Shown here piece after piece: positions 1 to 64,000 of a stretch of DNA of 64,000 bases. The stretch is taken from positions 1,364,001-1,428,000 of the forward strand of contig NZ_CP042453.1 of the NCBI RefSeq assembly GCF_007993735.1, given 5' to 3'. Source of the DNA: Arenimonas daejeonensis. Lineage in GTDB: Bacteria > Pseudomonadota > Gammaproteobacteria > Xanthomonadales > Xanthomonadaceae. How positions within the stretch are numbered: position 1 is the first letter of the stretch; each line of letters starts with the position of its first letter. Made by a program: the position numbers and the translations under genes. Under the pieces are notes generated by a model. The model was not told the DNA's origin. It ran no database searches and saw only the letters and a list, made by a program, of their open reading frames with translations.

Positions 1-2886
1 TGCCTGCAACGAAGGGCTTTTGTCCTGGGGCAGGAAACATTTTGGGTCTTCCGACTTAACGAGAGGATCGGACGCCTGGGTTGGCGCGAGCGAGATCCGA
101 ATCTACGACGAACGGCATGAAGGTTCGCGGCCGGATGATGCCGAAATATCGAACCTCGCGGAAGACACGGCGAACGCGGTCCATTGGTACTCGGGAACGG
201 TGTCTGGTGAGGATCCTGATCTTGCGATCATCGCCCAATTGGAGACGTCGAACCCAAGTGCACTTCCCACCAAGCTCGCCACCCCCATGGGCTTTGGTGG
301 CTTGGTGAGGACTCGTATTCGCGAGCCATCTAGCATGGCTGGAGGACAGCTGCTGCGTGAGTCCCGAATGGCCGCGCCCCCATCCCTTCGGGGGATGGCC
401 TTGCCGACGCCACTGCCAGCGCCATCGCAGCACTCGAGAACATTTCAGACGAGAGGCTGGGTTATGTCTTTGCTCCAAGCGTGCATGTGATCACGAGTGC
501 CTTGGAGCGAGCGGAGTTCGCGGCCGTTTCGTCTTCTACGGTAGACCCCGCCTGCTTCCTTGGGAATTGGCTTGAGGGGACTTACCTCTGGGACTACGAG
601 CTGCCCGCCTATTCAGGCCGCGCCGGCGACAGCAACGGCTACTACTTGCTGTCCAGGATCAAGGAGCTGGACCTCGAGACCTTGAAGCTCGTCATCAAGC
701 GCTTTCCGGGGTGCGACGAGATGCCGGACGAAGCGCTTGCGGAGATCGTCGAAGAAGTCGCGCGGCGAGGAATACCTACGGTCAGGGGGCTGGCGGCCGG
801 CGACTCAGGTGCCACGGGAGACCTTGGGCTGCTCATAGCCACCCGCCTCCTCCAAGACAGCTTCCGCGTGTCTGGGCCAAATTCCGGCCTGTTGGCGCCA
901 TGGGCCAAGGTTGGCGAAGAGGATGAAATCGCCTTGGTGATACCGGTAGACCCATTCCAAGGTTATCTGGACGATCTTGCCAAGGCACTCAAGCGGCCAA
1001 CCCTGCATCGTCCTGACTTACTGGTCGTCACGATGAGGATTAGCGACGCCTCGGTCAGCTTCCGGCTGACGCCGATAGAGGTCAAGAATCGGGGTGCGGG
1101 CGCACAAATGTCTCCCGCGGACCGGGGTGATGCGTTGGCGCAAGCCCGGTCGCTTTCATCCCTTTTCGAAGCGCTCTCCTCAACCTATACCGACGACCAA
1201 GAGATGGTCCTTTGGCGCATTGCGCACCAGAACCTCTTGACATCCATGATCGGATACGGATTCAGGGTTTATAGCCAGCGCTTGGCCGCGGCAGGCAAGT
1301 CCGGCGAGTGGTCCAAGCTCCATGCGCGCGCGATGGAGGCGATATTGGGCTCGCAGGCGAGGATCGAGGTTGATGTAAGGGGAAGGTTGGTCGTCATCGA
1401 CGGCTCAAGTGCGAGTGGCGCCCGGGACACCGACGCCGACGGGTTCCAGGAAACCATCGAGCTCTCGCACAAGGATGCCGCACTCTTCATCCAGGGGAGG
1501 CACGAAGCCCTTTGTGGCGCCATGAAAGAGAGACTGGGTGCTTGGGACCTCTTCCCACGAACGGAAGGAAACGCGCCCGCAGCAGGCGTCACGGCCGAGG
1601 CAATCCCCGTCCCGTCCGGCGGAGGCGAAACCATGGTTGAACCAATCCCTCAGCCCGCCCCGACGCAGCCCATTGAGCCGGACGAAGCGCCCCAGCCCAC
1701 TGCCGTGCCTCTCCCGGATGTGGCGCCGATCGACGGCCTGGGTGCTTCGCAGACGGGCTTGGTGATTCGAATCGGTGAAACGATCGATGGCTTTGAAAGC
1801 CAGTTGCGCCACCTAAACCTCGGCAACACTTCACTAAATCAGATGAACATGGGCGTCGTCGGCGACCTCGGTACCGGCAAGACGCAGTTGCTCCAATCTC
1901 TGGTGTATCAGGTCGCCAAGGGTGGGGCCGGGAACAGGGGTGTAGAGCCAAGCGTCCTGATATTCGACTACAAGAAGGACTACAGCGCGGATGAGTTCGT
2001 CGGAGCCGTCGGCGCGCGTGTCATAAGGCCGCAGCACCTTCCATTGAATCTTTTCGACCTGTCGACTGCTTCTCAGTCGATCAATCCGAAGCTGGAGCGG
2101 TACAAGTTCTTCTCGGACATCCTCGACAAGATCTATCGCAGGATTGGTCCGGTGCAGCGCGATCGGCTCAAGAAAGCCGTCAAGGATGCATACGCCCAAG
2201 CACCGGACGGGACCTATCCAACGATCTACGATGTCCACAACAACTACGTGGATGCACTCAACGGCGGGGCAGATTCCTTGTCGGGAATCCTTGGTGACTT
2301 GGTGGACATGGAGCTGTTCACGCCGGACGCGAGCGCGGTGGTCTCTTCGGCCGAGTTCCTGCGGGGTGTGGTGGTCATCTCGCTCAACGAGCTTGGTTCC
2401 GATGACAGGACCAAGAACATGCTGGTCGCCATAATGCTCAATGTCTTCTACGAGCACATGCTCCGTATCCCTAAGCGGCCGTTCCTTGGGCCTGGCCGGA
2501 ACATGCGAGTGGTCGACTCAATGCTGCTCGTGGATGAGGCTGACAACATTATGAAGTACGAATTCGACGTGCTCCGCAGGATCCTGCTGCAGGGTCGCGA
2601 GTTCGGCGTTGGAGTCATACTCGCTTCCCAGTACTTAAGTCACTTCAAGGCGGGCGCGACGGACTACCGGGAGCCACTGCTAACCTGGTTCATTCACAAG
2701 GTTCCAAATATTCGGCCTCAGGAGCTATCTGCGCTTGGACTCAGTGATGCGTCCGGACTGGCTCAGCTGGCAGAGCGAATCAGGGGTCTCGGAGTGCATG
2801 AATGCCTGTACAAGACCCACGACATTCAGGCTGAGTTCCTACATGGCGCGCCTTTCTATAGGCGTGCTGAATGGTCAAGCCCCTAG
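1..2886 (+). CDS. Nuclease/HerA-FtsK-type ATPase of a restriction-like defence system (DptH-like), 5' partial, frameshifted
   Basis: The C-terminal half is a P-loop ATPase. Walker A GDLGTGKTQ is at bases 1861-1887 and Walker B MLLVDEADN at 2521-2547. Further upstream, RPDLL (about 1009) and PIEVK (about 1072-1086) have the D...ExK spacing of a PD-(D/E)XK nuclease core. A Pro-rich linker (about 1560-1740) separates the two parts. Architecture and size suggest a DNA-translocating restriction ATPase such as DptH of phosphorothioation-dependent systems; this family call is inference. The frame that opens at 361 has no convincing start, and the nearest GTG (481) lies inside plausible protein. Bases 2-360 encode matching protein in another frame, so one C is probably missing in C363-365 and the gene continues upstream of the window. 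The stop is at 2884-2886. Confidence 0.6.
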
Positions 2887-3091
2887 TGTTGCGTGCGGGA
2901 GGGAGTAACCTGCTGCACGTAGCGCTGGGAGATGCGAACGAAATGTTTCAATGAGGGCCGTTTGGTGTTCTGCGTGCGTTACCCTCTTCTGAGTAGTTGC
3001 GCAGTAGCAAGCGACGGATCTGGGCAGGGCTTGCCTGTGGCCGAGAGCGGGTTCAAAAAATGGCTGCTCCATTCTTACCCGGCAAACGCAT

Positions 3092-3370
3092 TCATCCGGG
3101 TTTTCGGAGGCGCCAGGGGCCAGATTCCGAGACGCGCTCCACCATGCCCTCTGATTCCAACTCCCGCACCAGCGCGACTACCCAATACTGTTGGTTGGAA
3201 GAGGTAGCCTTAGGGTAATCACCCCAGTCGAGTCCGCACTCTCGGCTGATACGCGCAAGCTTCATTCCTTCGGCGCCGGGTTGGCAAAGAGCAGATGACT
3301 GAAAAAAACGAAGTACAAGCGCCTTGGCGCTGTTGCGAAGAGAACGACCATTTTCTGCAAACTGCGACAC
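3092..3370 (-). CDS. Small winged-helix-like protein (92 aa)
   Basis: The GTG start at 3370 is chosen because a strong ribosome binding site, AAGGAGG, lies 6 bases before it; an in-frame ATG at 3388 lacks one. The C-terminal 60 residues look like a winged helix: a helix with ARISRECGLDWG, then YWVVALVRELESEGMVERV, then a wing ending GPWRLRK. No function is recognised. The gene converges on the ATPase gene and follows the 88-aa gene on the same strand by 83 bases, so the two may be co-transcribed. Base composition is lower in GC than the housekeeping part of the window, consistent with horizontally acquired DNA. It could also be the detached C-terminal domain of a larger restriction protein. 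Confidence 0.5.
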   Translation of the reverse strand: MSQFAENGRSLRNSAKALVLRFFQSSALCQPGAEGMKLARISRECGLDWGDYPKATSSNQQYWVVALVRELESEGMVERVSESGPWRLRKPG

Positions 3371-3453
3371 GCGAACCCTCCTTTGCAATGCTCTGCGTTT
3401 TGGCCAACTGCCTTAGCAAAACCGCGCCGAAGGCGGCGGCTTGAATGATTTGG

Positions 3454-3720
3454 TTAGGGCCGTTGGCGCGCGTGGATGTAGCCGGGGATATTTGATACGC
3501 CTGACCTGACATTGACGCGATCCCCAATCGTCAGATATCGAGAACGAGCGTACTCGCCATGTGTGGCGAAAACTATGTATCCGTCTGGGTCGCAGAGAGC
3601 GCCCGGAAACTTCTCAAGTGGCATGAACCACATGCCATCCTTGTGGTAGCGGACCTGTTTGGCTGGGATCTGCCACTCGCGTTGTAGTCGCACCCCACTA
3701 TTTGTTCTTCGCCCTGTCAT
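3454..3720 (-). CDS. Hypothetical 88-aa protein next to the defence ATPase
   Basis: The ATG at 3720 has GGAGGG four bases upstream. The protein is rich in aromatic and charged residues (YHKDGMWFMPLEKFPGA, then DPDGYIVFATHGEYARS) and ends with a beta-rich stretch GDRVNVRSG. That composition resembles a compact beta-domain rather than a shadow frame. I do not recognise the family; similar segments may occur as C-terminal domains of HNH-type restriction proteins, but this is memory and untested. It precedes the winged-helix gene on the same strand. Bases 3721-3985 upstream hold no gene that I can see. Confidence 0.45.
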   Translation of the reverse strand: MTGRRTNSGVRLQREWQIPAKQVRYHKDGMWFMPLEKFPGALCDPDGYIVFATHGEYARSRYLTIGDRVNVRSGVSNIPGYIHARQRP

Positions 3721-3985: not shown

Positions 3986-4899
3986 TCAGAAGAGGTTTAG
4001 CGATCGGGAGAATTTCCCGGGCGGCATTCCGACGTGCCGCGCAAACGAAGAACTGAACGTACCCGCGGATCTATAGCCAACCCGTTCGGCAACGTCATCG
4101 ATCACGAGGTTCCCACGACGCAGCAACCCCTTCGCCACCGCCATCCTCCACCCCAACAAATACTCCATCGGCGGCACCCCCACCGCTTTCGTAAACCGCT
4201 CAAAAACACCGACCGCGACAGCGCCGCCTCCTTCGCCAACGCCGCCATCGTCCAGTGCCGGCCAAGCTCCGCATGCATCCGCTGCAGCGCCACCGCGATC
4301 CGCGGATCCGCCAGCCCGCGCAGCAGGCCGGGCGGGGCGTTGGCGGCGTCGGCATGGCTGCGCAGGGTTTCGATCAGCAGCGCATCCACCAGCCGGGCCT
4401 GCATCAGTTCGCGGCCGGGGCGGGCGTCGGTGGCTTCTTCGCGCAGCAGGTGCACCAGGCGGGTCAGGCGGTCGACGCCGCGCACGTGCACCTGGCCGGG
4501 CAGCAGGGACACCAGCAGGGCGGCGTCGGGGGTGGCGAATTCGAACCATCCACCAATCGATACAAATTGGGCTTCGCCGCCAAGGCGACCGTGCCGAAGT
4601 GGCTTTTCGTCATCCACGTTGGCCCCGGCCTGCGGGTCCAGCCACACCGGCGGCGTCGGCGCGCCGGCGGACAGGGTGAAGCCCGGGGTGGCGGGCAGCA
4701 GCACGAAGTCGCCGGCCTGCAGGTCCAGCGGGGGCTGGCCGTCCACGGCCAGGCGGGCCTGGCCGGCCAGGATCACGGTGAAGGCGGGCTGGCCGAAGGC
4801 GCCGTAGCGCACGGCCCAGTCGCCGGCGCCCTCGATGGCGCGCGAGAAGACGGCGCGGGGCTGGAGGCGTTGGATCACTTCGGATAGGGGGTCGGTCAT
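3986..4899 (-). CDS. AraC-family transcriptional regulator with cupin sensor domain (frameshifted)
   Basis: The N-terminal 170 residues form an AraC_binding_2/cupin-type sensor (QPRAVFSRAIEG, then GDFVLLPATPGFTLS). The C-terminus has the two AraC helix-turn-helix motifs: WTMAALAKEAALSRSVF and, in another frame, LVIDDVAERVGYRSAGTF. The frame breaks at the A-run 4202-4206 (T5 on the coding strand). Restoring a sixth T gives SRSVFFERFTKAVGVPP, the expected family sequence, so a one-base deletion is inferred. The start MTDPLSEV at 4899 fits the usual N-terminus, although the upstream frame is open to 4977. Regulators of this type usually control an adjacent oxidoreductase or hydrolase gene, but no obvious target is adjacent. 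Confidence 0.8.
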
Positions 4900-7115: not shown

Positions 7116-7136
7116 CGTGGTTTTCTCGTGGCTTTG

Positions 7137-7150
7137 TTACCGTTCGGGTA
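7137..7150. promoter_or_regulatory. hipBA operator 2 (degenerate)
   Basis: TTACCGTTCGGGTA matches 11 of 14 positions of the perfect operators and is centred midway between them, 49 bases from each. It lies just upstream of hipB, where the promoter is expected. Confidence 0.6.
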
Positions 7151-7184
7151 AATTCCGCCTGAAATACGGCCTTGTCAATAAGAT

Positions 7185-7200
7185 TTTCCCGTACGGGAAA
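7185..7200. promoter_or_regulatory. hipBA operator 3 (TTTCCCGTACGGGAAA)
   Basis: Perfect 16-bp palindrome containing the same 14-bp core as operator 1. It lies between hipB and the divergent SDR gene, about 110 bases before the SDR start. Confidence 0.75.
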
Positions 7201-7308
7201 GTGATTTGTTTTCGGTTCCGGACGTTCGCAAACAAAAACCGGATGATGGATCGTAGTCCGTCCGGGTGCCGGACGCCAAGCTGGACTCCCCAACCAAGGA
7301 GTTCCGCA

Positions 7309-8052: not shown

Positions 8053-8099
8053 GGCCTGGCCGGTGGGCTTCCGGGCCTCGGGCTTGGGGTTCGGAGCTC

Positions 8100-8485: not shown

Positions 8486-8487
8486 TG

Positions 8488-9116
8488 ATGAGCAACACTC
8501 TGCCCCTGATGGACCTGCTGTTCCCCGGCACCCGGCAACGGGTGCTGGCGACGCTGTTGCTGCAGCCGGGGAGGGCTTCCATCTGCGCGAGCTGGCCCGA
8601 CTCGCCGGCAGCCACGCCGGCACGCTGGCCCGCGAGTTGGACAAGCTGGTGGCCACCGGTCTGGTGCAGCGCCAGGCGCGGGGCAACCAGGTCGTGTACC
8701 GCGCCGACCCGCGGCATCCCTTGTATCCCGAGCTGTCGGCCATGTTCCGCAAGACCCATGGCGTGGCCGCCCTGCTGCGCGAGGCCCTGGCGCCGGTTGC
8801 GGCGCAGGTCCGCGTCGCCGTGTTGTTCGGTTCGATGGCGCGCGGCACCCACACCGCCAGCAGCGATGTGGATGTGCTGGTGGTGGGCGACGTCGCCTTC
8901 GGCACGCTTGTGCAGGCCCTGCACTCCGCGCAGCAGGAACTGGGGCGCGAGATCAATCCGGTGCTGTACACGCCGGGCGAATTCCGTACGCTGCTGTCCG
9001 AAGGCGGCGCCTTCGCACAGGCCCTGCGCAGCGATTCCAATGTCCTCCTGATCGGGGGCGCGGATGAGCTTGCGGAACTTGCTGGCGATACAAAGGCTGC
9101 AAGCGCACACAGCTGA
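8488..9116 (+). CDS. Winged-helix/MNT-type nucleotidyltransferase, antitoxin-like (frameshifted)
   Basis: The N-terminal winged helix (MSNTLPLMDLLFPGTRQRV, then FHLRELARLAGSHAGTLAR) is followed by a minimal nucleotidyltransferase domain with GSMARGTHTASSDVDVLV (GSxxRG...DxD), so the catalytic metal ligands are present. Proteins of this type act as MNT antitoxins that nucleotidylate a HEPN toxin encoded just downstream. The start ATG at 8488 and the catalytic part lie in different frames. Adding one G to G8568-8571 joins them as LLLQPGEGFHLREL, the family pattern, so a one-base deletion is inferred. The next reading frame, at 9064, starts like a HEPN partner but is truncated. Confidence 0.75.
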
Positions 9117-18529: not shown

Positions 18530-19485
18530 TCAGGGCGCAGTTCGGCCGCCCGCGGCATGGCCAGCGCGGCGCCGAGGCGTTCGGTCGATTGCCCGGCGTA
18601 TCGGGTGGCGTAGGCCACGGCCTCGGCGAACACGCTGCCGTCCCCGGATGCGAGCCGGGCCGCCAGGGCGCCATTGAAGGCGTCGCCGGCACCGGTGGTG
18701 TCCACGGGCGTGACGTTGGCGGCGGGCATGCGATAGCAGGACGTGCTGTCGCCGCGGCGGTCGTCGCCGTGCGAGACGAAAGCGCCGGACGCGCCGAGCG
18801 TCAGCACGATCGTGGCGCGCGGGGCGAGCTCGCGGCACATGGCATGCAGCGCCGCATCATTGAGGCCGGCGATGCTTTCCGCCGCCAGGCCGCGGCCGGT
18901 GTGCCGGGACAGCAGGGCGGAGAATTCGGTTTCGTTCGGGGTCAGCACGTCGGCGGCGGCCAGCAGTACGTCGCTGGTCGGTGCATTCACCGGCGCGGGG
19001 TTGAGCAGGGCCAGCGCGCCGGCGGCGGCCCCGGCCTGCAGCGCGCGCAGCACCGCGTCGGGCGCGACTTCCAGCTGCACCAGCACGACGGCCGCGTCGG
19101 CGAAGTCGTGCTGCTGCGCGGCGACGAAGTCTTCGCCCAGCGCGGCATTCGCGCCGGGCGCGACCACGATGACGTTGTGCCCGGCGTTGTCCACGAAGAT
19201 GCCGGCGGTGCCGGAGGCGATGTCGGGAAACACTTCCGCGCGCAGCGTGATGCCGTCGTCCGCAGCCAGCGCGCGGGCATTGGCGGCCGCGGCGTCATCG
19301 CCCAGCGCGGTGATGAACACGGTGCGGGCGCCCGCGCGCGCCGATGCCACGGCCTGGTTGAAGCCCTTGCCGCCGGGGCCCGTCAGGTAGGCGCCCAGCC
19401 GCGTCGCGCCGGGCGCGGGCAGGTGGTCGGCGGACCAGACATGGTCCTGGTTGTAGGAGCCGACGACGACGACCGTGCCGGCCAC
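18530..19485 (-). CDS. rbsK: Ribokinase (PfkB family), frameshift near the stop
   Basis: Phosphorylates ribose (ribokinase-like sugar kinase, PfkB family). Motifs: GPGGKGFNQAVASAR near residue 38, NPAPVN, LTPNETEF, and the catalytic DTTGAGDAFNGALAARLASG. The reading frame does not stop after this domain but runs through the antisense of dusB, which is implausible. Adding one G to G18533-18535 (C on the coding strand) creates a stop at 18530 directly after AELRP, giving about 318 residues. It starts three bases after the nucleoside transporter stop, so the two form an operon in which ribose from imported nucleosides could be salvaged. Confidence 0.85.
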
Positions 19486-22055: not shown

Positions 22056-22621
22056 CTAGCCGGGCAGGCCGCGCAGCGCCACCCACAGCGCCAGGCCCAC
22101 GAACAGCGCGGCGGCGGCCCAGCGTGCCGCCTTGAGCGGCAGCTTCGCGGCGAAGCGCGCGCCCAGCAGCACCACCGGCACGTTGGCCACGGCCATGCCC
22201 AGGTGGTGCCGGCGACCACCTGCCACAGCGGCGAGTACTGCGCCGCCAGCACGACGGTGGCGACCTGGGTCTTGTCGCCGATCTCGACGATGAAGAAGGC
22301 GATGAGGGTGGCGAGGAAGGGCCCGAAGCGCGGCGGCTTGACCTCGTCTTCGTCGAGTTTGTCGGGAACCAGCGCCCAGGCGGCGACCGCCAGGAAAGAC
22401 ACCACCACGCCCCAGCGCAGCCACTGCGGGTCGATCCACTGCGTGACCAGGGCGCCGAACCAGCCGGCCAGCGCATGGTTGAGAAGGGTGGCCGCAAGGA
22501 TGCCGGCGATGATCGGCCAGGGTTTGCGGTAGCGCGCGGCCAGCACCAGGGCCAGCAGCTGGGTCTTGTCGCCGATTTCGGCGACGGCCACGGCCAGGGT
22601 GGAAACGAACAATGCGTCCAA
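22056..22621 (-). CDS. GDT1/UPF0016-family cation exporter (frameshifted)
   Basis: A small inner-membrane transporter of the GDT1/TMEM165 family, linked to Mn2+ or Ca2+ export. It has the duplicated signature: AEIGDKTQLLALVLAARYRK in the first half and VEIGDKTQVATVVLAAQYS in the second. The second half breaks at the GG of 22202-22203; adding one base joins AGTT to LGMAVANVPVVLLGARFAAK. The start is the TTG at 22621 (LDALFVSTLAVAVAEIGDK), preceded by GGAG at a good spacing. I could not recognise a yybP-ykoY manganese riboswitch in the leader. Confidence 0.85.
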
Positions 22622-22740: not shown

Positions 22741-24032
22741 TTATTGCTCCGACGGCGCCTCGGTCCGGATCACGATGTGTTCGCGGCCTTCGTCGTCCAC
22801 CCAGTGCTGGCGGCTGACGATGCGGGCGACGACGCCGTCGGCCAGGGCCAGGGTTTCGCCGGGTGCCGGGGCGGGTGGCGCCGGCGGTGCGTCTGGGACA
22901 GGGGCCGCGGGCGGTGCAGGCGGAGCGGGCGGGGTCGGCGCGACCTTGGGCGTGCGCGGTGCCGGCGGGGCCGGAGGCGCGGGCGGGGCGGGGGTGCAGG
23001 CGGGGCGTACCAGCGCACGCCGGGGGCGTCGGGCACGGTGACTTCGACGGTGCGCGGCTTGCGTTCGCGCAGCAGGTCCACCTTCACCTTTTCGCCGTCG
23101 TCCTGGTCGCGCAGGGCGCGCATCGCGTCACGCGGCGAGTTCACCGCGGCGCCGTCGATCTTCTGGATCACGTCGCCCGGCTCCAGCGTCTCCAGGCCGG
23201 CGCCGCCGCTCAGCACGAGCACGCCGCTGCTGGTGCCGAAGTAGCGGCCCAGCTGCGGGTTCATCGAAGCCAGGTTCAGGCCGCTCCAGCGATAGGCCTG
23301 GGTGAGCGCGGGAAAACTGCAGTCGTCGTCGCCGGGCGGGCAGGGCGCGGCAGCCATGCGGGCGATTTCCATCTGCACGCGCGGGTCGATCACCGGCGTG
23401 GCGCGGGCGTATTCGCGCGCCGCACGTTCGGCGGCCCGTGCCCGCTCCGCGGTCAGCACCTGGACCTGCGGGGTTTCACTGCTGGAGAAAACCATCACGC
23501 GGTCGAGTTTTTCGGCCTTTACCGTGGCCTGGGCGGACTTGCCGTCGCGCGAGTAGCCCAGCCGCAGCGACTGACCTTCCTTGAGGCCGTCCAGCAGGCC
23601 GCGCGCCTGTTCGATGGCGGCGTCGCCTTTGGCGCTGATCGCCTTGCCGTCCACGCTGAGCAGCATGTCGTTGGCGCGCAGGCCGGCCTTGGCGGCCGGG
23701 CCGTTGGGCGTGACCGCGGCGATGCGCACGCCGGCCCAGTCCGGGCTGGCGCCCATCACGATGCCGATAGCGGGCCGGCCGCCGAAGGCGTCGAAGGAAT
23801 TGAAGGATTCGACATTGAAGCTGTAGGCATTGGCACCGGATTCGCCCAGTTCGCGGGTGAGTTCGGACACGCGGCGGGCGCTGCGGTTGAGTTCGGCACG
23901 CGCGCGTTCGAGTTCGGCGCGCTTGGCGGCTTCGGCGGCGGCCGTCTCGGCGCTGGCCTTCGGCGTGTCGGCGGCCTGGGCGGTGGCCGCCAGCGCGGCG
24001 GCCACCAACAGGGAAATCAGGCGGAACTTCAT
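22741..24032 (-). CDS. Periplasmic protein with two PDZ domains (frameshifted)
   Basis: The signal peptide MKFRLISLLVAAALAATAQA is followed by a coiled-coil-like segment (residues about 25-60). A first PDZ domain follows (AVTPNGPAAKAGLRANDMLL) and a second (GGAGLETLEPGDVIQKIDG). Then comes a Pro/Ala-rich linker and a conserved end LADGVVARIVSRQHWVD. No protease triad is visible, so it is probably a PDZ adaptor or sensor. The linker is broken at G22990-22994; one added base restores the C-terminus ending at the TAA at 22741. It is third in an operon after an ECF sigma factor and a membrane protein, which suggests a part in envelope-stress signalling (inferred). Confidence 0.8.
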
Positions 24033-24063: not shown

Positions 24064-24626
24064 TCAGAAGGTGGCGACCAGGGCGCCGTCGAGCGTGTCG
24101 CCGTCGGTGGCGAGCCATTGCGACGTGCCCTGCACGCCGGCGTATTCGCGCAGCAGGCCGACGCGCTGCTGCCAGAGCAGGGCGCGGCTCTCGGCATCAA
24201 GTGTCGGCGCGGACAGCGCGACGTCGATCCGGCGCAGGCGGTCTTCGAATTCCAGGCCGAGCAGGGCGGTGCTGGCGGAAGCCATCTCGTCGTCGGCGAC
24301 GGCGCTGATCAGGTTTTCGAGCCGGGCCGATTCGATCATCAGCGACTCCAGCGGGATCGGTGCGGTGGCCGTGGCCGGGGTGGCGGCGACCGGATCGGTC
24401 ACCGGCGCGGTGGTCGGCGACATCAGGCGCGGCATCAGCGCGGCGACGGCCAGGGTGGCGGCCGCGGCCAGGGCGAACGGCCAGCGTGGGCGTGGACGGC
24501 CGGCGGCGCGGCGATGATGCGGCGCTCCAGCAGCGGCCAGGCGCTGCGGTCCGGCGTTTCCAGCGGCAGCCGGCCGAAGGCTTCGGCGACGCTGATGTCG
24601 GTGTCGCGGGGCGTGGTGTCAGGCAT
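24064..24626 (-). CDS. Putative anti-sigma factor, membrane protein (frameshifted)
   Basis: Starts MPDTTPRDTDISVAEAFGRL with an overlap of the sigma stop (ATG at 24626). A single membrane helix (WPFALAAAATLAVAAL) is followed by a periplasmic part with ESLMIESARLENLISAV and WQQRVGLLREYA. Position and topology fit an anti-sigma factor, although no ZAS motif is visible. The frame breaks at 24498-24499; one added base (CC to CCC on the coding strand) joins the cytoplasmic and membrane parts. It lies between the sigma gene and the PDZ gene and is co-transcribed with both. Confidence 0.7.
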
Positions 24627-33019: not shown

Positions 33020-33416
33020 ATGAGTGAGATTCCCGGCGACCTGAAGTTCCTCAAGTCCCACGAATGGGCCCGCGTCGAAGACAGCGGCCGCATCACCGTC
33101 GGCATTTCCGACCACGCCCAGGGGGCTGCTCGGCGACCTGGTCTACGTCGAGCTGCCGAACGTCGGCGACACCCTGGAGCAGGGTGGCGCCAGCGCGGTG
33201 GTCGAATCGGTGAAGGCGGCGTCCGACGTGTATTCGCCGGTGTCCGGCACCGTGGTCGAGGTCAACGCGGCCCTGGCCGACAAGCCCGAAACCATCAACG
33301 AGGACGCCTACGGCGAAGGCTGGATCTATGTCATCCAGCCGTCCGAGCCGGACCAGGTCAACGAGCTGCTTTCGCCCGACGACTACTCCCAGCTGCTCGA
33401 GGACGAAGGCCACTGA
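33020..33416 (+). CDS. gcvH: Glycine cleavage system H protein (frameshifted)
   Basis: The lipoylated carrier of glycine cleavage. [20 protein letters not shown] and ISDHAQG are in one frame. [20 protein letters not shown], the lipoyl-lysine motif [17 protein letters not shown] and the end LLEDEGH are in another. The break is at G33121-33125; removing one G restores [15 protein letters not shown], the expected sequence. An extra base in a homopolymer is therefore inferred, since gcvT beside it is intact. A strong hairpin follows the stop. Confidence 0.92.
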
Positions 33417-34789: not shown

Positions 34790-36021
34790 CTAGCGCCGCT
34801 TGCGTCGGGGCGCCGGCCGCGCCGGCTCGGGCGCCAGCCATTCCCGGGTGGGCAGGCCCAGCGCACGGTCGATGGTGGTCGGCAGCAGGCCCGAGGGCAT
34901 GGCGCTTTCGCTGTTCCAGAGGATGACCACGCCCAGGTCGCGGTCGGGCAGGAAGGCGGCCATGGCGCGGTATCCTGCACGGCGCCGCCGTGGAAAACCA
35001 AGGTGTGCCCGGCGTAGTCGTAGATGCGCCAGCCCAGACCGTAATAAGCGCTGTTGAGGCGTTCGCGGCGCCAGGGCGAACTGCGGGTTTCACCCGGTGT
35101 GGCCACCTGCGGCGTCTGGATTTCATTGAGCACGTCGGATGGCAGCACGTCCGGGCGATGGCCCATCTGGGCGATCAGCCACTGCGCCATGTCGTGGATG
35201 CTGGCGTTGACGCCGGCGGCGGGCGGGATGCGGTAGTAGGTTTCCTTCGGCCGCACCGGCACCCAGGTGCCGCCGCTGCGCACGTGCGGGCGCGCCCAGC
35301 TGGCGCTTGCCTCCAGCCCGTCGCGGCCGAAGGTGGCGCCGTACATGCCGAGCGGGTGGAACAGGCGCTTCTCGACCTGGTGCGCGTAGAAGTCGCCGGT
35401 GACCGCGAACACCAGGTCGCCGACCAGGCTGAAGGCGATGTTCTGGTAGGCGTAACACTCGCCGGGGCTGCAGGTCAGCGGCGCCTGCGAAAGTCTTTCC
35501 GCCAGCAGCGGGTAGGGCTGGTCGGCCTCGAGGTCGCGGTCGAAGGTGTTGTAGGCCAGGCCGACGCGGTGGCTGAGGATCTCGCGCACGGTGATCTTCT
35601 GCGCGCCCTGCAGGTCGCGCAGGGTGAAGGCGGGCAACTGGTTGGCGATCGGGCTGTCCCAGGACATCGCGCCCTCGTTCACCAACAGCGCGCTCAGCGT
35701 GCCGGCGAAGGCCTTGGACAGCGAGGCGACACGGAAGACGGTGTCGGTTCCGACCGGGTCGCTGCCCTTGCTGTCGACCACGCCGTAGCCGCGGATGGAG
35801 ACGACCTTGCCGTCCTCGACGATCGCCATCGCCATGCCGGGGATGCGCGATTGCTTGACGACACGTTCGGCCAGGATTTCGATCTCGCGCGCCTGGGTGC
35901 TGAAATCGCCAGCGGCAGGCGGACTGGCGGCCGCGGCCAGGGCCGGGGCGAACAGGAGCAGGCACGAGAGCAGCGGGTGCAGCAGGTGTACGGTGGAGCT
36001 GGTTTTCTTGCTTCTTGGCAT
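34790..36021 (-). CDS. Serine beta-lactamase/penicillin-binding-like hydrolase (frameshifted)
   Basis: A secreted class C beta-lactamase-fold protein: signal region MPRSKKTSSTVHLLHPLLSC, SLSK (SxxK nucleophile) in VASLSKAFAGTL, the YxN motif in CYAYQNIAFSLV, and HGG (HxG, third motif) in LVFHGG. Family members include AmpC-like enzymes, DD-peptidases and esterases; the substrate is unknown. The frame breaks at 34974-34975. Adding one base yields FHGGAVQGYRAMAAFLPDRD and a C-terminus ending PRRKRR at the stop at 34790. It is divergent from lemA. Confidence 0.85.
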
Positions 36022-36741: not shown

Positions 36742-38641
36742 ATGAACTTCTTCGAGCGCCAGGATCAGGCCCGGCGCCAGTCCAGGCGGCTGATCCTGCT
36801 GTTCGTACTGGCGGTGGCCGCGATCGTGATCGCGGTGGACGCCGTGTTCCTGCTGGCCTTCGGTGCCTGGGCGAAGACACCACCCCCGAGGGCCTGGTCG
36901 CCGGTGTGGTCCTGGCCAGCCTGGTCAGCCTGGGCATCATCGGCGTGGCTTCGCTCTACCGAATCTCCAGCCTGCGCGCCGGCGGCGCCGCGGTGGCCCG
37001 GCAGATGGGTGGTACGCCGGTGCCCGAGGACACGCACGACTTCCACTACCGCCGCCTGCGCAACGTGGTCGAGGAGATCGCGATCGCCTCGGGCGTGCCG
37101 GTGCCGCAGATCTTCGTGCTGGAGGAGGAGGCGGGCATCAATGCGTTCGCCGCCGGTTACGCCACCAGCGACGCCGCCGTGGCGGTGACCCGCGGCGCCC
37201 TGGACAGGCTCAACCGCGACGAGCTGCAGGGCGTGATCGCGCACGAGTTCAGCCACGTGCTCAACGGCGACATGCGCCTGAACATCCGGCTGATGGGCAT
37301 GCTGTTCGGCATCCTGGCCCTGGCCATCATCGGCAGGAAGGTGCTGCAGCACGGCCGTGGCAACTCCAAGGACGCGGCGCCGGTGATGCTGGCGGCGCTG
37401 GGCCTGCTGGTCATCGGCTATGTCGGCATGTTCTTCGGCCGGCTGATCAAGGCCGGGGTCAGCCGCCAGCGCGAGTTCCTGGCCGACTCCTCGGCGGTGC
37501 AGTTCACCCGCCAGACCGCCGGGCTGGCCGGCGCGCTGAAGAAGATCGGCGGCCTGCAGGAAGGCTCGAAACTGGCCAGCCGCGATACCGAGGAGGTGGC
37601 GCACATGCTGTTCGGCGACGGTGTCGGTTATTCGTCCCTGTTCGCCACGCACCCGCCGCTGCTCGCGCGCATCCAGGCGCTGGAGCCGGCGTTCAAACCG
37701 CAGGCGTTCGAAGACCTGGCCGCCCGCTGGCAGATGCATCCGCCTTCCGGGCTGGACGAAGACGCGGCCTGGGCCTGACCGGACGCGCGCCGCCGCCGTT
37801 GCCGGCCGACCTGACCGAACTGACGGTGAGCCCGCCGGGCGTGGTGGCCCAGGTGGGCGCGCCCCAGCCCGACGACTACGTGCGCGCCGGGGCCCTCGTG
37901 CATGCGATCCCCGACGTCCTGCAGCGCGCCGCCCGCGAGCGCGACGAGGCCATGCCGCTGCTGTTCGGTCTGCTGCTGGCGCCACCGGGCAAGGTGCGTG
38001 AACGCCAGCAGTTCGAGCTGACGGCGCGCCACGACGAGCGCATGGTGCGACAGGGCCTGGATTACGCCGACCGTCTGGCCGACCTGCCGCGCATGCTCTA
38101 CCTGCCGCTGGCCTCGATGGCGATGCCGGCCCTGCGCCGGCGGCCCAGGCCCGAACTCGAGAAGTTCATGGACGGCTGTTTCGCACTGACCCACGCCGAT
38201 GGCCGCGTGGACCTGTTCGAATACTGCCTGGGACGGTTGCTGCGCATCCAGGTGCGCGACGCCCTGGACCCGGCCGGCCACTGGAGCGCGAGCAACCGAC
38301 GCCTAGCCGACGTCACGCCGCAGGCGGTGACCCTGATGGCGGTGCTGGCGCAGGCCGGGCACGAGGATCCGGCGGCGGCGATGCGCGCCTACCTGGCCAG
38401 CCTGTCCCTGGTGTTCCCGCGCCTGAACTCGCCCTACCGGCCGCCATCGGATCCACTGGCGGCGCTGGACGAAGTCTGGCCGGTGCTCGACGCGGTGGAA
38501 CCGCGTGGCAAGGAATTGCTGCTCGAAGGCCTGGTGGCCGCGGTCAGCCATGACGGCCGCATCACCGTGGCCGAGGCGGAACTGCTGCGGGCGGTCTGCG
38601 CCTCGCTGCATTGCCCGCTGCCGCCGATGCTCGAGCGCTAA
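36742..38641 (+). CDS. M48-family membrane metalloprotease with C-terminal helical domain (two frameshifts)
   Basis: Starts MNFFERQDQARRQ with GGAG upstream. Two N-terminal helices precede the HtpX-like protease domain, with zinc motif HEFSHVLNGDM (from 37242) and a third ligand region SRQREFLADSSAVQF. The first break (G36869-36871, one base missing) joins AFGAW to GEDTTPEGLVAGVVL. The second (37774-37775) joins DEDAAWA to LTGRAPPPLPADL. The fused C-terminal domain of about 290 residues ends with HDGRITVAEAELLRAVCASL, which looks TerB-like. The roughly 630-residue total is much longer than HtpX (about 290). It follows lemA. Confidence 0.8.
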
Positions 38642-40494: not shown

Positions 40495-41827
40495 ATGACC
40501 CAGGGCAAGGACACCGCCGGCCGCTTCGACCACCTGCGCGGCGCGTTGCGGGAGTTCCCGCCGCTGATCTGGTCCTTCCTCTATTTCTTCTTCCTGCTGA
40601 CCGGGTATTACGTGTTGCGGCCGGTGCGGGATGCGATGGGTGCGTCCGGCGACGTCGAAGCGGTGTTCCCGTCGGCGTTGGTGGAGTGGGCGAACAGCCG
40701 CGGCTGGGCGCTGGGTGACCTGACCCTGCAGTTGCTGTTCACCGGCACCTTCATCGCCATGGTGCTGCTGCAGCCCGCCTACGGCGCCCTGGTCAGCCGG
40801 TTTCCGCGCCGGGTGTTCCTGCCGGTGCTGTACGCGATCTTCATTGCCTGCCTGTTCGGGTTCTACTTCATCTTCGACCAGGAGATTCCGGGCCGGGGTG
40901 CGGCATTTTTCATCTGGGTCGCGGTCTTCAACCTCTTCGCCGTGTCGGTGTTCTGGTCGTTCATGGCCGACATCTACACCGACATCGAGGCGCGCCGGCT
41001 TTACGGTTTCATCGCCGCGGGCGGCACCGCCGGCGGCTTCCTGGGGCCGCTGATCACGCGGGCCCTGGTGCACCAGATCGGCGTGCCGAACCTGCTGCTG
41101 GTGTCGGCCAGCCTGTTGGCCCTGTGTGTTCTGCATCCTCCGGCTGGGGCGCTGGGCGCGTCTGCGCGAACAGTCGCGCGGCGTCACCGGGGCTGAACAG
41201 GCGATGGGAGGCAGCGTGCTGGCTGGCTTGCGCCTGCTGCGCGACGAGCCGCTGCTGCGGGCGATGGCGGTGCTGATGTTCTTCGGCGTCGGCGTCGGCA
41301 CCCTGCTGTACAACGAGCAGGCGGCCATCGCGCGGCTGTATTACCCGGGCGACGAAGCGCGCACCGCCTACTACGCCAACATCGACCTGGCCATCAACCT
41401 GATCACGATCCTGGTGCAGGTGTTCCTGACGCGTCCGCTGCTGGTGCGGTATGGGGTGGGTCCGGTGTTGCTGATTCCCGCGGGCGCGATCCTGCTGGGC
41501 TTTGCCGCGCTGACCGCCTCGCCGCTGCCGATGCTGGTCGCGGTCGTGCAGATCGTGACCCGGGCGGGTGAATTTTCGCTGGCCAAGCCGGCCCGCGAGA
41601 CCATCTACACGCGGGTCGACCGGGAAATCCGCTACAAGGCCAAGGCCGTCATCGACACGGCGGTCTATCGCGGTGGTGATCTCTTCTTCGTCTGGTCGCA
41701 CAAGTTCCTGGCGGCGTTCGGGTCGGCGACGGTGTTCGCCGCCGGGCTGGCAGTCGCCGGCGGCATGACCTTCGGCGCCTGGCGCCTGATCCGCGAGCAG
41801 GAAAAGCTGCCAGCCGATCCGCGCTGA
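40495..41827 (+). CDS. MFS-type transporter related to nucleotide carriers (frameshifted)
   Basis: An inner-membrane carrier with about twelve helices. It starts MTQGKDTAGRFDHLRGALRE, then LLTGYYVLRPVRDAMG, a pattern seen in MFS proteins related to ATP/ADP translocases. The second half (LAGLRLLRDEPLLRAMAVLM, then EFSLAKPARETIYTRVDREI) lies in another frame. The crossing is between about 41126 and 41160; removing one G from GGGG near 41146 is the simplest repair. The substrate is unknown. It is preceded by a 179-base divergent gap and stands alone. Confidence 0.8.
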
Positions 41828-52357: not shown

Positions 52358-52807
52358 CCACGAACTGCGCTGGCAGCTGCGCCAGCTTCCGCGCGAGATC
52401 GAACCGTCCCGCGACCTCTGGCCCGGCATCGCCGCACGCCTGCAGCCGGCCGCGCCGCGCCGCCACCGGCCTGGTTCGCCGCCCTGGCCGTGGCCGCCTC
52501 GCTCAGCCTGGCGGTGGGCCTGGCCTGGCAGCTGCGCCATCCGGTGCCGCCGCAGGCCGATTTCCGGGCCGAGCTGGTGCAACGGGAAGCCGAGGCCCTG
52601 ACTCTCGAGTACCAGGCGGCCCTGGACCAGTTCGAAGGTGCACCGATGCCGGCGCCGCTGGAACCGACCCTGGCCACCCTCGACCGCAGCGCCGCCGACA
52701 TCCGCGCGGCCATCGCCAGCGATCCCGAGGCGGTGTTCCTGCTCGACCAGCTGCGCCGCACCTATGCCCACCGGCTGTCGCTCACCCAACGCGCCGTTAC
52801 CGGCTGA
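52350..52807 (+). CDS. Putative anti-sigma factor, single-pass membrane protein (frameshifted)
   Basis: Starts MSDHELRWQLRQLPREIEPS inside the sigma gene end. A membrane helix (WFAALAVAASLSLAVGLAW) and a periplasmic helical part (QREAEALTLEYQAALDQFEG, then VFLLDQLRRTYAHRLSL) follow in another frame. Adding one G at 52468-52469 joins them as RRHRAWFAALAV. The DRDLWPGI-like segment (EPSRDLWPGIAARL) recalls anti-sigma factors of xanthomonads without a ZAS motif. It is co-transcribed with the sigma gene. Confidence 0.75.
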
Positions 52808-53991: not shown

Positions 53992-56618
53992 ATGTCTAAT
54001 TTCAATCAGCTGTCCGGCGCGATCCGTTTCGCGCTCCTCGCCGGCGCCGCTTCCACCTTCGCGGCGGTTCCCGCCTTCGCGCAGGACACCACGGAAGACG
54101 CCGCCACCCTTGACACCATCGAGGTCACCGGTTCCCGCCTGAAGCGCGCCGACATCGAAGGCGCCGTTCCGGTCGTCGTGATCGATCGCGCCCAGATCGA
54201 CGCCTCCGGCGACGTGTCGGTGGCCGACGTCCTCCGCGACTCGACCTTCGCCTCGTTCGGTAACTTCCGTCCGCAGTCCGGTTCGTCGGCCCAGTCCCTG
54301 GCCACGATCGACCTGCGCGGTATCGGTTCGGGTCGTACCCTCGTGCTGGTTGACGGCCGTCGCGCCCCGACCAACCCGATGTCCGCCTCCTCCGGCTCCG
54401 ACCTGAACGCCATCCCGCTGGCGGCCGTCGAGCGCATCGAGATCCTGTCCGACGGCGCGTCCGCCGTGTACGGTTCCGACGCGATCGGTGGTGTGGTCAA
54501 CATCATCCTGCGCAAGGACTTCAACGGCGCCGAGCTGCGTTACGGCGTCGGCAACACCTCGATCACCGGCGGCGACACGGAAGACATGTCCGTCGTGTTC
54601 GGCTCGGCTTCGGACCGCACCCGCATCGTCGGTGGCGCCTCGGCCAGCAAGCGCGGCATGGTGTTCACCCGTGACCAGATCGGTGGCGACACCCTGGGCG
54701 TCAGCACCTACGGCAACAACTACTACGGCTGGAACGTCATCGACGCCAACGAAGACGGCGTGATCGACAACGCCGACCTGGGCGACATCGATGGTGACGG
54801 TGCTGGCTACGACGGCCTCTCCGGCGGCGTTGGCGCGGTCCCGGGCTTCAACTGCAACCAGAATGGCTTCTGGACCCTCAGCAACGGCCTGTGCTCGTTC
54901 GACTTCAACTCGGTTGCGGCCAACGAGGCCAAGGTCGGCAACAAGTCGGTGTTCTTCCGCGCTGATCACCAGATCAACGACGACTGGAGCGTCTACGCCA
55001 CCGCCACCACCACCAAGGTCGAGACCTTCGGCCGTTACGCGCCGGTCCCGGGCGTTGTGGTTGTCCAGGATGGCACTCCTCAGGACATCAACAACAACCA
55101 GTTGCTGATTGACGCCTACGACGGCGTGACCGACGGCCTGCCGACGTACTACTTCCACCGCTTCGCCGCGGCCGGCAACCGTGACAACTTCACCGACACG
55201 ACCAACTCCGACTACATGGTCGGTTTCCAGGTCAGCTGACCGACACCATCGGCGTCGACTTCGGCCTGCGCCGCACCGACTACAAGTACATCGAGCTGGG
55301 CCGTGGCTACATCGTCGGCAGCCTCGCCAACGAAGCCGCCAACGACGGCGACTACCTGCTGACCGACCCGTTCGGTGCCGATCCGGCCGTGCTGTCGTCC
55401 ATCCAGGCCACGATCAACCGTGAGTCGCGCTGGCAGACCAACGAAGTCTACGCCACCTTCAATTTCGACCTGTTCGAAATGGGCGGCGGCACCTCGAACG
55501 CCGTGTTCGGCGCCGAGTACCGCGACGACACCTTCCAGGACCTGTACGACTCCCTGTCCGAGGCCGGCGTGGTGCTGGGTTCGGCGGGCAACTCCTCGGC
55601 GGGTACGCGTGACGCCACGGCCGTGTATTTCGAGTGGCTGCTGCCGTTCACCAGCACCTTCGACATCACCCTGGCTGGCCGTTTCGACGATTACAGCGAC
55701 TACGGCAATGACTTCTCGCCGAAGGTTGCGATGCGTTGGCAGCCGCTTGACACGCTGACCTTCCGTGGTTCCTACGGTGAAGGCTTCCGCGCCCCGGGCC
55801 TGGACATCCTGACCCAGAAGACCACCTTCTCGGCCGAGCCGGTCAATGATCCGGCGTCCTGCCTTGCGCTGGCCCAGCCGTCCACCTGCCAGCTGCAGGT
55901 TGACACGTACTTCCAGGCCAACCCGAACCTGGCGTCGGAGAACTCCCAGCAGTTCAGCCTCGGCGTCGTCTGGGATCCGCTTGAGTGGCTGGATCTGTCC
56001 CTCGATTACTACAACATCGAAATCGAGAACACGATCTCGCAGATCAGCGCCCAGGACATCATCAACTCCGACCTGGATCCGTCCACCTACGGTCCGATCC
56101 CGCCGGGCCTGAGCATCACCCGTCGTGCCAACGGCGCCATCGACGAGATCGTCGCCGGTTACGCCAACCAGGGCACGCTGGAAACCGACGGTTGGGACTT
56201 CCGCGCGAACACCAACTTCGATTTCGGCAACTACGGTGAGCTGCGCAACCAGCTGTCCGTCTCGTACATCAACAGCTACGAGATCGACGACGGTATCGGC
56301 AACGTGACCGAGTACGCCGGCCTCGAAGGTTCCCCGGACCTGCGTGCGTCGCTGTACAACACCTGGACGATTTCCGACTTCACCTTCGGTTGGAACATCA
56401 ACTTCATCGACGGCCAGGAAAACGGCCAGGGTGGCTACGCGACCAACGACGTGCAGTTCTCCTGGAACGCCCCGTGGAACGGTACCTTCGCCATTGGCGC
56501 GACCAATGTCGGCGACCGTTACCCGGACCTGAACGCCTACGACGGTCGTCCGTGGAACTTCTACCTGTACGACGCCTACGGCCGCACCACCTACTTCCGT
56601 TACACCCAGACGTTCTAA
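53992..56618 (+). CDS. TonB-dependent outer-membrane receptor, non-iron type (frameshifted)
   Basis: Signal region ending AAVPAFAQD, TonB-box-like LDTIEVTGSRLKRADIEG, plug with DLRGIGSGRTLVLVDGRRAP and YGSDAIGGVVNIILRKDFNG, and a barrel ending TTYFRYTQTF. The length of about 875 residues and the start MSNFNQLSGAIRFALLAGAA fit the oar-like/carbohydrate-or-peptide receptors of xanthomonads. An insertion, DANEDGVIDNADLGDIDGDG, resembles EF-hand/dockerin calcium loops. The frame breaks at 55230-55231; one added G gives VGFQGQLTDTIGVDFGLRRT. A terminator follows. Lack of a Fur box argues against iron. Downstream genes suggest peptide or carbohydrate uptake (inferred). Confidence 0.88.
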
Positions 56619-56694: not shown

Positions 56695-57676
56695 ATGGAA
56701 GCGAACGACGACACCGCCCGCAAGGCCGCCTGGACCTCCTATTGGGCGACCGGCGGATTGCATTCGTGCATCGGCAGTTTCGCCGGCAACTACACCGGCG
56801 CCATCGGCCGGTTCTGGGCCGACGTCTTCGCTACCCTGGCGCCAGGCCAACGCGTGCTCGACCTGGCGACCGGCAACGGCGCCCTGCCGCTGATGCTGAT
56901 CGAACGCAGGGCCCAGGACGGGTTGCGGATAGATGCCGTGGACCTGGCCGAACTCTCTCCGGCCTGGTATCGGCCGGAGGTCCATGCGGGGATCCACTTC
57001 CACCCGGGCGTGGCGATGGAGGCGCTTCCGTTCGAGGCGGGCCGTTTTGATCTGGTGGTCAGCCAGTTCGGATTCGAATATGCGGACCGCGAGAAGGCCC
57101 TGCAGGAATGCCTGCGCGTGCTTGACGGGAAAGGCCAGCTTGCCCTGGTCATGCACCATGCCGGCTCGGTGCTGGTCGAGGTCGGCCGCGCGGAACTGGA
57201 GAACCAGGGGTTCCTGCTCGGCGAAAGCGGCCTTTTCCCGGCGGCGCGTGCCGTGATTCCCCTGGTTCGCCCGGGCGCGCGCCGGCGTCGACCTGCGTGG
57301 CAACAGTGAGGCCACGGCCTGTCGCGAGAACTACAACCTCGCCATGCAGGCGCTGGCCCGAAAGGCGGTCGGCAGCCGCGCGCCGGATGTCCTCAACGAG
57401 ACCCGCGATGCGATCCACGCCCTGCTGGCCCAGACCGGGACCGATGCTTCCACCTCCCTGCAGGCGCTGGAAGGCCATCGCGAGCAACTGCAGCAGGCGC
57501 AGCTGAGGACGGCGGAGCTGATCGGGCACGCCCTGGGCGAGGCGGAGGCCTCGGCCATGGTGGCGAAGCTGGAACAGGCGCGCCCGGAGGCGCAGGTCCG
57601 TTGCGAGCCGATCAGCCAGGCCGAAGGTCTGCTGGGCTGGGCCTTGCGGATGCAGCCGGCTCAGTCGGCCGGCTGA
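56695..57676 (+). CDS. SAM-dependent methyltransferase-like protein (frameshifted)
   Basis: Class I methyltransferase motif I VLDLATGNGALPLMLIERRA (about residues 53-72), acidic motif II region RIDAVDLAELSPAW, then RFDLVVSQFGFEYADREKAL. A helical C-terminus (RENYNLAMQALARKAVGSRA, then HREQLQQAQLRTAELIGHAL) lies in another frame. The crossing near G57273-57275 (one extra base) would join PLVRP to ARAGVDLRGNSEATACREN. The substrate is unknown. Its end overlaps the 3' end of the TPR-sulfotransferase gene by 16 bases, tail to tail. It follows the TonB receptor after a terminator, so it has its own promoter. Confidence 0.72.
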
Positions 57677-63724: not shown

Positions 63725-63740
63725 TTCCTGGTGGCTCTTC

Positions 63741-63768
63741 GGCCCGGCTCCGGCCGGGCCTTCTTTCC
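63741..63768 (+). terminator. Terminator after the ComEA-like gene
   Basis: GGCCCGGC-tccg-GCCGGGCC followed by TTCTTTCC. Confidence 0.75.
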
Positions 63769-63786
63769 GAATATTTCGAGGCGCGC

Positions 63787-64000
63787 ATGTCCGCGATCCT
63801 GTCCCCGCCCGATCGTCCCGCGCGTGGCCATCGCGCGAAACGCCTGGTACAGCCCGCCACGCCGGGGCAGACGCACGTGGTCACCGTGGCCACGCTCTAC
63901 CGGCGTGCCGTGTTCGTGGACGACGAGGCCGCGCGCGCGGTCTGCCGCGTGCACACGGCGGCCTGGCCCTGGCGCGATGCCAGCCTGCTGGCCTGGGTGT
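63787..64000 (+). CDS. REP-associated tyrosine transposase (RAYT), 3' truncated by the window
   Basis: Only the first 71 codons are visible: RGHRAKRLVQPATPGQTHVV, then TVATLYRRAVFVDDEAARAV and DASLLAWV, where members of the Y1/IS200-like RAYT family continue to the HUH motif (MPDHWH). The match rests on the N-terminal pattern LxxPxxxxHVVxxxxxRR. RAYTs are single-copy domesticated transposases that act on REP palindromes. REP-like inverted repeats occur at 25.2 and 38.6 kb. The catalytic part lies outside the window, so intactness cannot be judged. Confidence 0.75.
   Translation, partial: MSAILSPPDRPARGHRAKRLVQPATPGQTHVVTVATLYRRAVFVDDEAARAVCRVHTAAWPWRDASLLAWV

What the first reader, a model, noticed from the sequence alone, without database searches (positions are those of the whole stretch)
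1..64000. At least 15 single-base frameshifts, nearly all in short homopolymers
Breaks lie near 363, 4202, 8568, 18533, 22202, 22990, 24498, 33121, 34974, 36869, 37774, 41140, 52468, 55230 and 57273. In each case adding (12 cases) or removing (3 cases) one base, nearly always within a G/C or T run, restores a known family sequence. They hit housekeeping genes (gcvH, gcvT's partner) as well as accessory ones. This argues for residual long-read error, not pseudogenisation or programmed frameshifting. The window should not be used to call any of these genes dead.
Basis: partly seen in the sequence, partly recalled or inferred. Interest (0 to 1): 0.7.

Follow-up and report, generated by a model that had tools for sequence, protein, structure and literature searches.

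The report
Sequencing-error frameshifts at CCWGG sites
The broken genes in this stretch of an Arenimonas genome are almost certainly sequencing errors rather than dead genes, and many of the errors sit on one DNA motif, CCWGG, that bacteria often methylate and that nanopore sequencers are known to misread.

Summary
The window is from an Arenimonas genome (3.03 Mb, one contig, 86.4% complete). All 15 listed places show a reading-frame break: 14 by homology in two frames, one (18533) as a lost stop. At 41140 two bases are missing, not one, and "nearly all in homopolymers" is overstated.

The breaks continue outside the window. In 464 kb of this genome, 339 A. terrae orthologues show 125 breaks, about one per 2.6 kb of coding DNA. 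The same 87 A. oryziterrae query genes give 40 breaks here and 1 in A. terrae. The rate does not fall in the most conserved genes. rpsC, rplC, rpsG, ileS and valS are split over frames, so neither pseudogenes nor programmed shifts explain it.

Of 137 clean 1-2-base coding gaps, 52 lie within 5 bases of CCWGG (38%, background 6.8%), and TTCCTGG becomes TTATGG seven times. That matches the published nanopore error at Dcm-methylated sites; the rest favour C and A runs. The genome's only C5 cytosine methyltransferase match lies 6 kb upstream, beside vsr, in a cassette ending with a DndH-like ATPase inside the window. That it methylates CCWGG is inference.

The parts
363..421 (+).
   Evidence: Rhizobium 1826-aa homologue matches one frame up to 421 and another from 250 onward; ORFs 20-490 and 481-2886
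4202..4204 (-). Frame break in a cupin/AraC-type regulator (gene 4001-4899)
   Evidence: A. terrae 308-aa orthologue in two frames; also A. oryziterrae; A. terrae protein is Cupin_6 + HTH_18
8568..8571 (+). Frame break in a nucleotidyltransferase-domain protein (gene 8488-9107)
   Evidence: Comamonas homologue residues 1-28 in one frame, 28-207 in the next; Pfam NTP_transf_2
18532..18539 (-). Lost stop at the end of a sugar-kinase-like gene (18532-19485); weakest case
   Evidence: Relatives end within about 7 residues of this point, here the frame runs on to 17416; the kinase label is a recalled motif, from no call
22202..22208 (-). Frame break in a GDT1-family gene; creates a spurious GDT1-GGDEF fused ORF (20849-22723)
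   Evidence: A. terrae 180-aa GDT1 in two frames here, with a separate 376-aa neighbour; six of seven relative alignments give net -1; CCWGG at 22199
22860..23007 (-). Frame break in a PDZ-domain protein (22744-24032); exact base unresolved
   Evidence: Five relative sets; low-identity spans across the place in two
24483..24513 (-). Frame break in a 187-aa protein of no Pfam family (24067-24626); exact base unresolved
   Evidence: Five relative sets
33120..33124 (+). Frame break in gcvH (33020-33413)
   Evidence: All 16 relative sets that hit show the same net shift; some are one genome fetched twice; the only full-length GCV_H locus in the genome; CCWGG at 33118
34975..34975 (-). Frame break in a PF00144-family serine hydrolase (34823-35907)
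   Evidence: 13 relative sets show a break, 11 of 13 with net -1; one further genome (in two sets) has a 67%-identity span across it
36864..36900 (+). First frame break in an M48-family peptidase gene
   Evidence: 15 relative sets; CCWGG at 36866
37763..37774 (+). Second frame break in the same M48-family peptidase gene
   Evidence: 15 relative sets; CCWGG at 37768
41123..41140 (+). Frame break in an MFS transporter; two bases missing, not one
   Evidence: 15 relative sets, commonest net -2 (8 of 15); low-identity spans across it in some
52463..52517 (+). Frame break in a 153-aa protein of no Pfam family; exact base unresolved
   Evidence: Six relative sets; CCWGG at 52470
55224..55230 (+). 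Frame break between plug and barrel of a TonB-dependent receptor
   Evidence: Six relative sets, all net -1; Pfam Plug and TonB_dep_Rec halves; CCWGG at 55227
57246..57300 (+). Frame break in a methyltransferase-domain protein (from 56695); exact base unresolved
   Evidence: Three relative sets, low-identity spans across it in one of them
1..2886 (+). 3' part of the DndH-like ATPase that ends the vsr / C5-methyltransferase cassette (cassette begins about 8.1 kb left of the window)

Best explanation
The frameshifts are consensus errors of a long-read, most likely nanopore, assembly that was not polished with accurate reads. Two classes of error mix: miscalls at CCWGG motifs, and shortened or lengthened C/G and A/T runs. 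Shown here: the breaks occur in every sampled stretch, are private to this assembly, blind to gene importance, and enriched at CCWGG. Inferred: the platform (nanopore, about 0.85), that CCWGG is methylated in this organism (about 0.7), and that the enzyme is the C5 methyltransferase encoded next to vsr 6 kb left of the window. The genes themselves are most likely intact in the living cell. The confidence given is for consensus error as such.
For: 339 A. terrae orthologues in 464 kb of the genome: 125 breaks (one site counted twice through two A. terrae tuf copies); 104 of 124 distinct sites resolve to one gap of non-3n length. Same-query control: A. oryziterrae proteins give 40 breaks in this genome and 1 in A. 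terrae over 87 shared genes; A. terrae against A. oryziterrae 0 of 90. Rate by identity bin (55-75, 75-85, 85-90, 90-95, 95-100%): 0.31, 0.38, 0.27, 0.40, 0.44 per kb. rpsC, rplC and rpsG each have one locus split over two frames, and valS and ileS are split too; tuf, obgE, gapA, pgk, pth, coaD and relA/spoT-family orthologues are hit. Among A. terrae 5-mers CCAGG/CCTGG ranks first by p-value (28 of 2171, 5.5-fold, p = 1.4e-12) while CCCGG/CCGGG has 2 of 1240; 52 of 137 gaps lie within 5 bases of CCWGG against 6.8% background and 6 of 40 for 3n gaps. TTATGG in this genome stands opposite A. terrae TTCCTGG seven times. Wick et al. 2019, passages read: for then-current ONT basecallers about 70% of consensus errors in a Klebsiella set fell in CCAGG/CCTGG Dcm motifs, homopolymers next. 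The genome has one PF00145 C5 methyltransferase match; A. terrae has none.
Against: No reads are available, so the bases were not checked directly. 66 of 137 gaps are neither near CCWGG nor a change in a run of 3 or more, as measured against a relative about 13% diverged. When 5-mers are taken from this genome's own sequence, CCAGG ranks fourth, after AGGGG, GCCCC and CATAA, and CCSGG shows a small excess (6 of 1293; 10 of 137 gaps against 4.0%). The window's own break rate (0.245 per kb) is lower than in the other sampled stretches (0.31-0.55). Noncoding 1-2-base gaps are not CCWGG-enriched (5 of 90), which I put down to natural indels outnumbering errors there. 12 in-frame stops were also flagged; some may be real.
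Confidence: 0.95

Rival explanations
1. The genes are true pseudogenes of a genome in early decay, as in a recent symbiont.
For: 28% of compared genes are hit (94 of 339), which would look like mass decay; the genome is rated only 86% complete.
Against: Break rate is as high in genes above 95% identity as elsewhere; ribosomal protein and tRNA-synthetase genes are broken; frame breaks outnumber flagged in-frame stops 125 to 12; breaks cluster at CCWGG.
Confidence: 0.02
2. Programmed ribosomal frameshifting is widespread in this organism.
For: Both pieces of many broken genes stay well conserved.
Against: Relatives encode the same proteins without a shift; shifts go in both directions and include two-base changes; hit genes such as rpsC, rplC and tuf are in one frame in A. 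terrae.
Confidence: 0.005
3. The errors are plain long-read homopolymer miscounts (any platform) and the CCWGG signal is a by-product of GC-rich runs such as CCC and GGG.
For: 40 of 137 gaps change a run of 3 or more, 23 of those also at CCWGG; gaps away from CCWGG are enriched in C4-5 and A4-5 runs; AGGGG and GCCCC lead the ranking in this genome's own sequence.
Against: CCCGG/CCGGG, equally rich in C and G, has 2 of 1240 against 28 of 2171; the repeated change TTCCTGG to TTATGG is not a run-length change.
Confidence: 0.1
4. CCWGG is not methylated here; the basecaller was trained on Dcm-methylated DNA and misreads unmethylated CCWGG.
For: Model training affects Dcm-site errors in the paper read; no methylation data exist here.
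Against: The paper describes the opposite direction for default models; this genome has a C5 methyltransferase with vsr that A. terrae lacks.
Confidence: 0.2

Closest known systems
Nanopore consensus errors at Dcm motifs (Wick et al. 2019, PMC6591954; passages read)
   Same: Errors concentrate in CCAGG/CCTGG, with homopolymer-length errors as the next class
   Different: Arenimonas is not an enterobacterium, and its one C5 enzyme scores far below the cut-off of NCBIfam PRK10458 (53.9 against 710 bits; that this model is the E. coli Dcm family is recalled). Here CCWGG accounts for 38-48% of clean coding gaps by distance used; in that paper about 70% of errors for then-current ONT callers
Gene-fragmenting errors in long-read assemblies of small genomes and MAGs (PMC12007338, PMC8103633, PMC11017572; search listing and abstract openings only)
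   Same: Frameshifts that mimic pseudogenes
   Different: Nothing of note; this is an ordinary case apart from the motif signature
DISARM methylase (modifies CCWGG according to the review PMC11676413, passages read)
   Same: A methyltransferase of a defence cassette; PADLOC DrmMII models match this enzyme (E about 1e-47)
   Different: Generic type II and Druantia-associated models match better, and PADLOC gave no other DISARM match among the cassette proteins, four of five tested only as Rhizobium homologues

Membership tests
Long-read assembly error (artefact) | Breaks private to the assembly and absent from relatives | tested here: met
   40 against 1 over 87 shared genes; 0 of 90 in the second control
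Long-read assembly error (artefact) | Breaks hit essential and dispensable genes alike | tested here: met
   Rate flat to rising with conservation; rpsC, rplC, rpsG, ileS, valS split
Long-read assembly error (artefact) | Bases not supported by accurate reads | not testable with these tools
   No reads available
Nanopore Dcm-type error | Enrichment of consensus errors in CCWGG over matched motifs | tested here: met
   28/2171 at CCWGG, 2/1240 at CCSGG; 52/137 against 6.8%
Nanopore Dcm-type error | The organism methylates CCWGG | not testable with these tools
   One PF00145 match present with vsr; its specificity is unknown
Nanopore Dcm-type error | Platform is Oxford Nanopore | not testable with these tools
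Genuine pseudogenes | Essential single-copy genes spared | tested here: not met
Programmed frameshifting | Shift site conserved in relatives | tested here: not met
   Relatives carry one open frame
Dnd restriction module (DndFGH), for the cassette at the left edge | DndH-type HerA ATPase | tested here: met
   PADLOC DndH E = 4.9e-69 on window:481-2886, C-terminal half of the model only
Dnd restriction module (DndFGH), for the cassette at the left edge | Recognisable DndF and DndG | tested here: inconclusive
   No PADLOC match for the 702- and 503-aa partners, tested on the Rhizobium homologues; folds not compared

The most novel reading that the evidence does not exclude
The errors are an imprint of a horizontally acquired defence cassette: the C5 methyltransferase of a vsr - methyltransferase - 702 aa - 503 aa - DndH-like ATPase island methylates CCWGG across the chromosome, so frameshifts in an unpolished assembly reveal the specificity of an uncharacterised, Dnd-like, methylation-based defence system.
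Probability: 0.45. Interest if true: 0.45.

Novelty: not a real feature. Interest (0 to 1): 0.25.

Why it matters
No gene of this genome should be called dead, fused or missing from this assembly: 94 of 339 compared genes carry a break, and the apparent GDT1-GGDEF fusion is an artefact. The low completeness value (86%) may well reflect broken frames rather than missing genes (inference). If the methyltransferase link holds, the pattern of consensus errors in unpolished nanopore assemblies could be mined to predict methylation motifs, and here it gives a testable specificity for the modification enzyme of a Dnd-like cassette.

Tried and rejected
Simple gene-length statistics did not show the problem: 55 predicted genes in 64 kb here and 98 in 114 kb of A. 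terrae, both 0.86 per kb; homology did. A raw count of all alignment gaps was too noisy, because diverged noncoding DNA and paired gaps swamp it, so I used isolated coding gaps with at least 80% identity in the flanks. Gaps not meeting this were dropped: 1811 gaps in all, 183 isolated coding ones, 137 of them of length 1-2. The 5-mer test is a binomial against the mean rate and overlapping k-mers are not independent. I looked for a second error motif in the 70 gaps away from CCWGG and found mainly run-length contexts. I checked the one PF01555 N6/N4 methyltransferase match as a rival modifier of CCWGG: it weakly matches adenine methylases, far below cut-off, and a restriction-enzyme-like ORF lies one ORF further on, so I consider it less likely. 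The methyltransferase target could not be assigned by homology: the 45 solved-structure sequences matched cover mainly the catalytic part and none is named as a CCWGG enzyme. One search for a paper on this genome found none naming it (listing only). One search plus passages of two papers on Dnd and BREX neighbourhoods showed cytosine methylases with other Dnd-type cores but not this cassette; that is too little to call it undescribed. In the counts some relatives appear twice under two identifiers (for example L009 and G021), so the numbers of relative sets are upper bounds.
Full report
What the window is. The window is bases 1,364,001-1,428,000 of a 3.03 Mb single-contig genome rated 86.4% complete. 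About 45 kb of alignment columns fall in strong blocks in the same gene order; those up to 54.7 kb are 81-91% identical, and the stretch from 55 to 61.5 kb is less alike (66-76%).

The breaks are there. A. terrae proteins compared with the window fall into two or more frames at 4204, 22202, about 22,860-23,007, about 24,500, 33,122, 34,975, 36,868, 37,766, about 41,127, about 52,460 and 55,227. Further Arenimonas relatives give the same places and add 57,256-57,283 (some relatives appear twice in that set, and at a few places low-identity single-frame spans were also listed). Site 363 lies in a large ATPase whose Rhizobium homologue matches one frame up to 421 and another from 250 onward. Site 8568 is a clean change of frame against a Comamonas homologue. 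Site 18533 is a frame that reaches the expected end of the protein and then runs on. All 15 sites therefore hold up, 18533 least firmly. One is not a single-base change: 41140 lacks two bases relative to A. terrae.

They are not special to the window. I took 400 kb more of the same genome, including the rpoB-ribosomal region, and matching A. terrae stretches. Over 339 orthologues and 110,049 residues there are 125 breaks, 0.38 per kb of coding DNA. Scaled to the genome, with an assumed coding share of 88%, that is roughly a thousand. As a same-query control, A. oryziterrae proteins give 40 breaks in this genome and 1 in A. terrae over 87 shared genes, and A. terrae proteins give none in 90 A. 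oryziterrae orthologues.

They ignore gene importance. In five bins of identity, from 55-75% to above 95%, the rate is 0.31, 0.38, 0.27, 0.40 and 0.44 per kb. Ribosomal proteins S3, L3 and S7 each have a single locus, split over two frames; valS and ileS are split as well. EF-Tu, ObgE, GAPDH, PGK, Pth and CoaD orthologues are hit too. A living cell cannot have lost these (established knowledge), so decay is excluded as a general explanation. Frame breaks outnumber flagged in-frame stops 125 to 12. Programmed frameshifting fails because relatives encode the same proteins without a shift.

They have a sequence signature. Without choosing a motif in advance, I ranked all 5-mers of A. terrae coding DNA by how often this genome shows an isolated 1-2-base gap inside them. 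CCAGG/CCTGG came first by p-value (28 of 2171, 5.5-fold, p = 1.4e-12); CCCGG/CCGGG had 2 of 1240. Ranked on this genome's own sequence, where error products appear, AGGGG, GCCCC and CATAA come ahead of CCAGG (27 of 2151), and CCCGG has 6 of 1293. Of 137 such gaps, 52 lie within 5 bases of CCWGG in either genome against 6.8% of matched random positions (p = 1e-25); CCSGG gives 10 of 137 against 4.0%; gaps of 3n length, taken as natural indels, give 6 of 40 for CCWGG. The same wrong product recurs: TTATGG here opposite TTCCTGG in A. terrae, seven times. In the window 6 of 15 sites lie within 4 bases of a CCWGG centre (p = 0.0003; CCSGG 2 of 15). The 70 gaps away from CCWGG are enriched in C and A runs of four or five. 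Relative to A. terrae only 40 of 137 gaps change a run of 3 or more, so 'nearly all in homopolymers' is overstated, although divergence hides some.

What that means. Wick et al. 2019 (PMC6591954, passages read) report that default nanopore models misread the Dcm motifs CCAGG and CCTGG, that these made up about 70% of consensus errors for then-current ONT callers in a Klebsiella set, and that homopolymers came next. The pattern here fits. I infer, but could not check, that this is a nanopore assembly without accurate-read polishing.

A candidate enzyme. The genome has one C5 cytosine methyltransferase match (PF00145) at 1,356,448-1,357,677. A. terrae has none, and 3 of the 15 same-genus genomes in that search, A. 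terrae among the 15, have one. The gene is open (468 aa), next to vsr, in a stretch of 57-62% G+C against 63-72% to its left. It is followed by homologues of a 702-aa and a 503-aa protein and of an ATPase of about 1826 aa, DndH-like in its C-terminal part and ending at window position 2886. A Rhizobium plasmid has all five genes together; a Pseudoalteromonas plasmid has four of them, with no vsr listed beside them. A strong match to the enzyme was found in 1 of the 148 other family genomes sampled. Its target is unknown. DISARM can modify CCWGG according to a review passage, and PADLOC DrmMII models match this enzyme, but generic type II models match better. The other candidate, an N6/N4-type methyltransferase at 544.6 kb, looks like part of a restriction-modification locus of the adenine kind, on weak matches. 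So 'this enzyme methylates CCWGG and thereby caused the errors' is a reasonable guess and no more; basecaller training bias remains possible.

Verdict. The correction is the mechanism: systematic miscalls at CCWGG plus run-length errors, in every stretch of the assembly that I sampled.

Noticed in passing
window 1-2886 and about 8.1 kb to its left (genome 1355924-1366886; L128, L179): Low-GC cassette vsr - C5 methyltransferase - 702 aa - 503 aa - DndH-like HerA ATPase. A Rhizobium plasmid carries all five genes and a Pseudoalteromonas plasmid four of them (no vsr listed beside them); it may be a Dnd-like defence system that uses cytosine methylation. The three large genes are also split over frames here.
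   Followed up: partly
window 20849-22723: The GDT1-GGDEF fused ORF is an artefact of the break at 22202: A. terrae has two separate genes.
   Followed up: yes
window 5629-9116: HipA-family gene near a nucleotidyltransferase-domain gene; a HipA gene and a nucleotidyltransferase gene also lie near the related cassette on the Pseudoalteromonas plasmid (L201).
   Followed up: no
window 57661-59469: TPR-sulfotransferase gene lies in the opposite orientation in A. terrae (local inversion) and is only about 52% identical, in a less conserved stretch at 55-61 kb.
   Followed up: no
L202 (genome 544244-548338): Methyltransferase with weak matches to adenine methylases and, one ORF further on, a restriction-enzyme-like ORF (BPTD_3080 family, below cut-off); A. 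terrae has no PF01555 match.
   Followed up: partly
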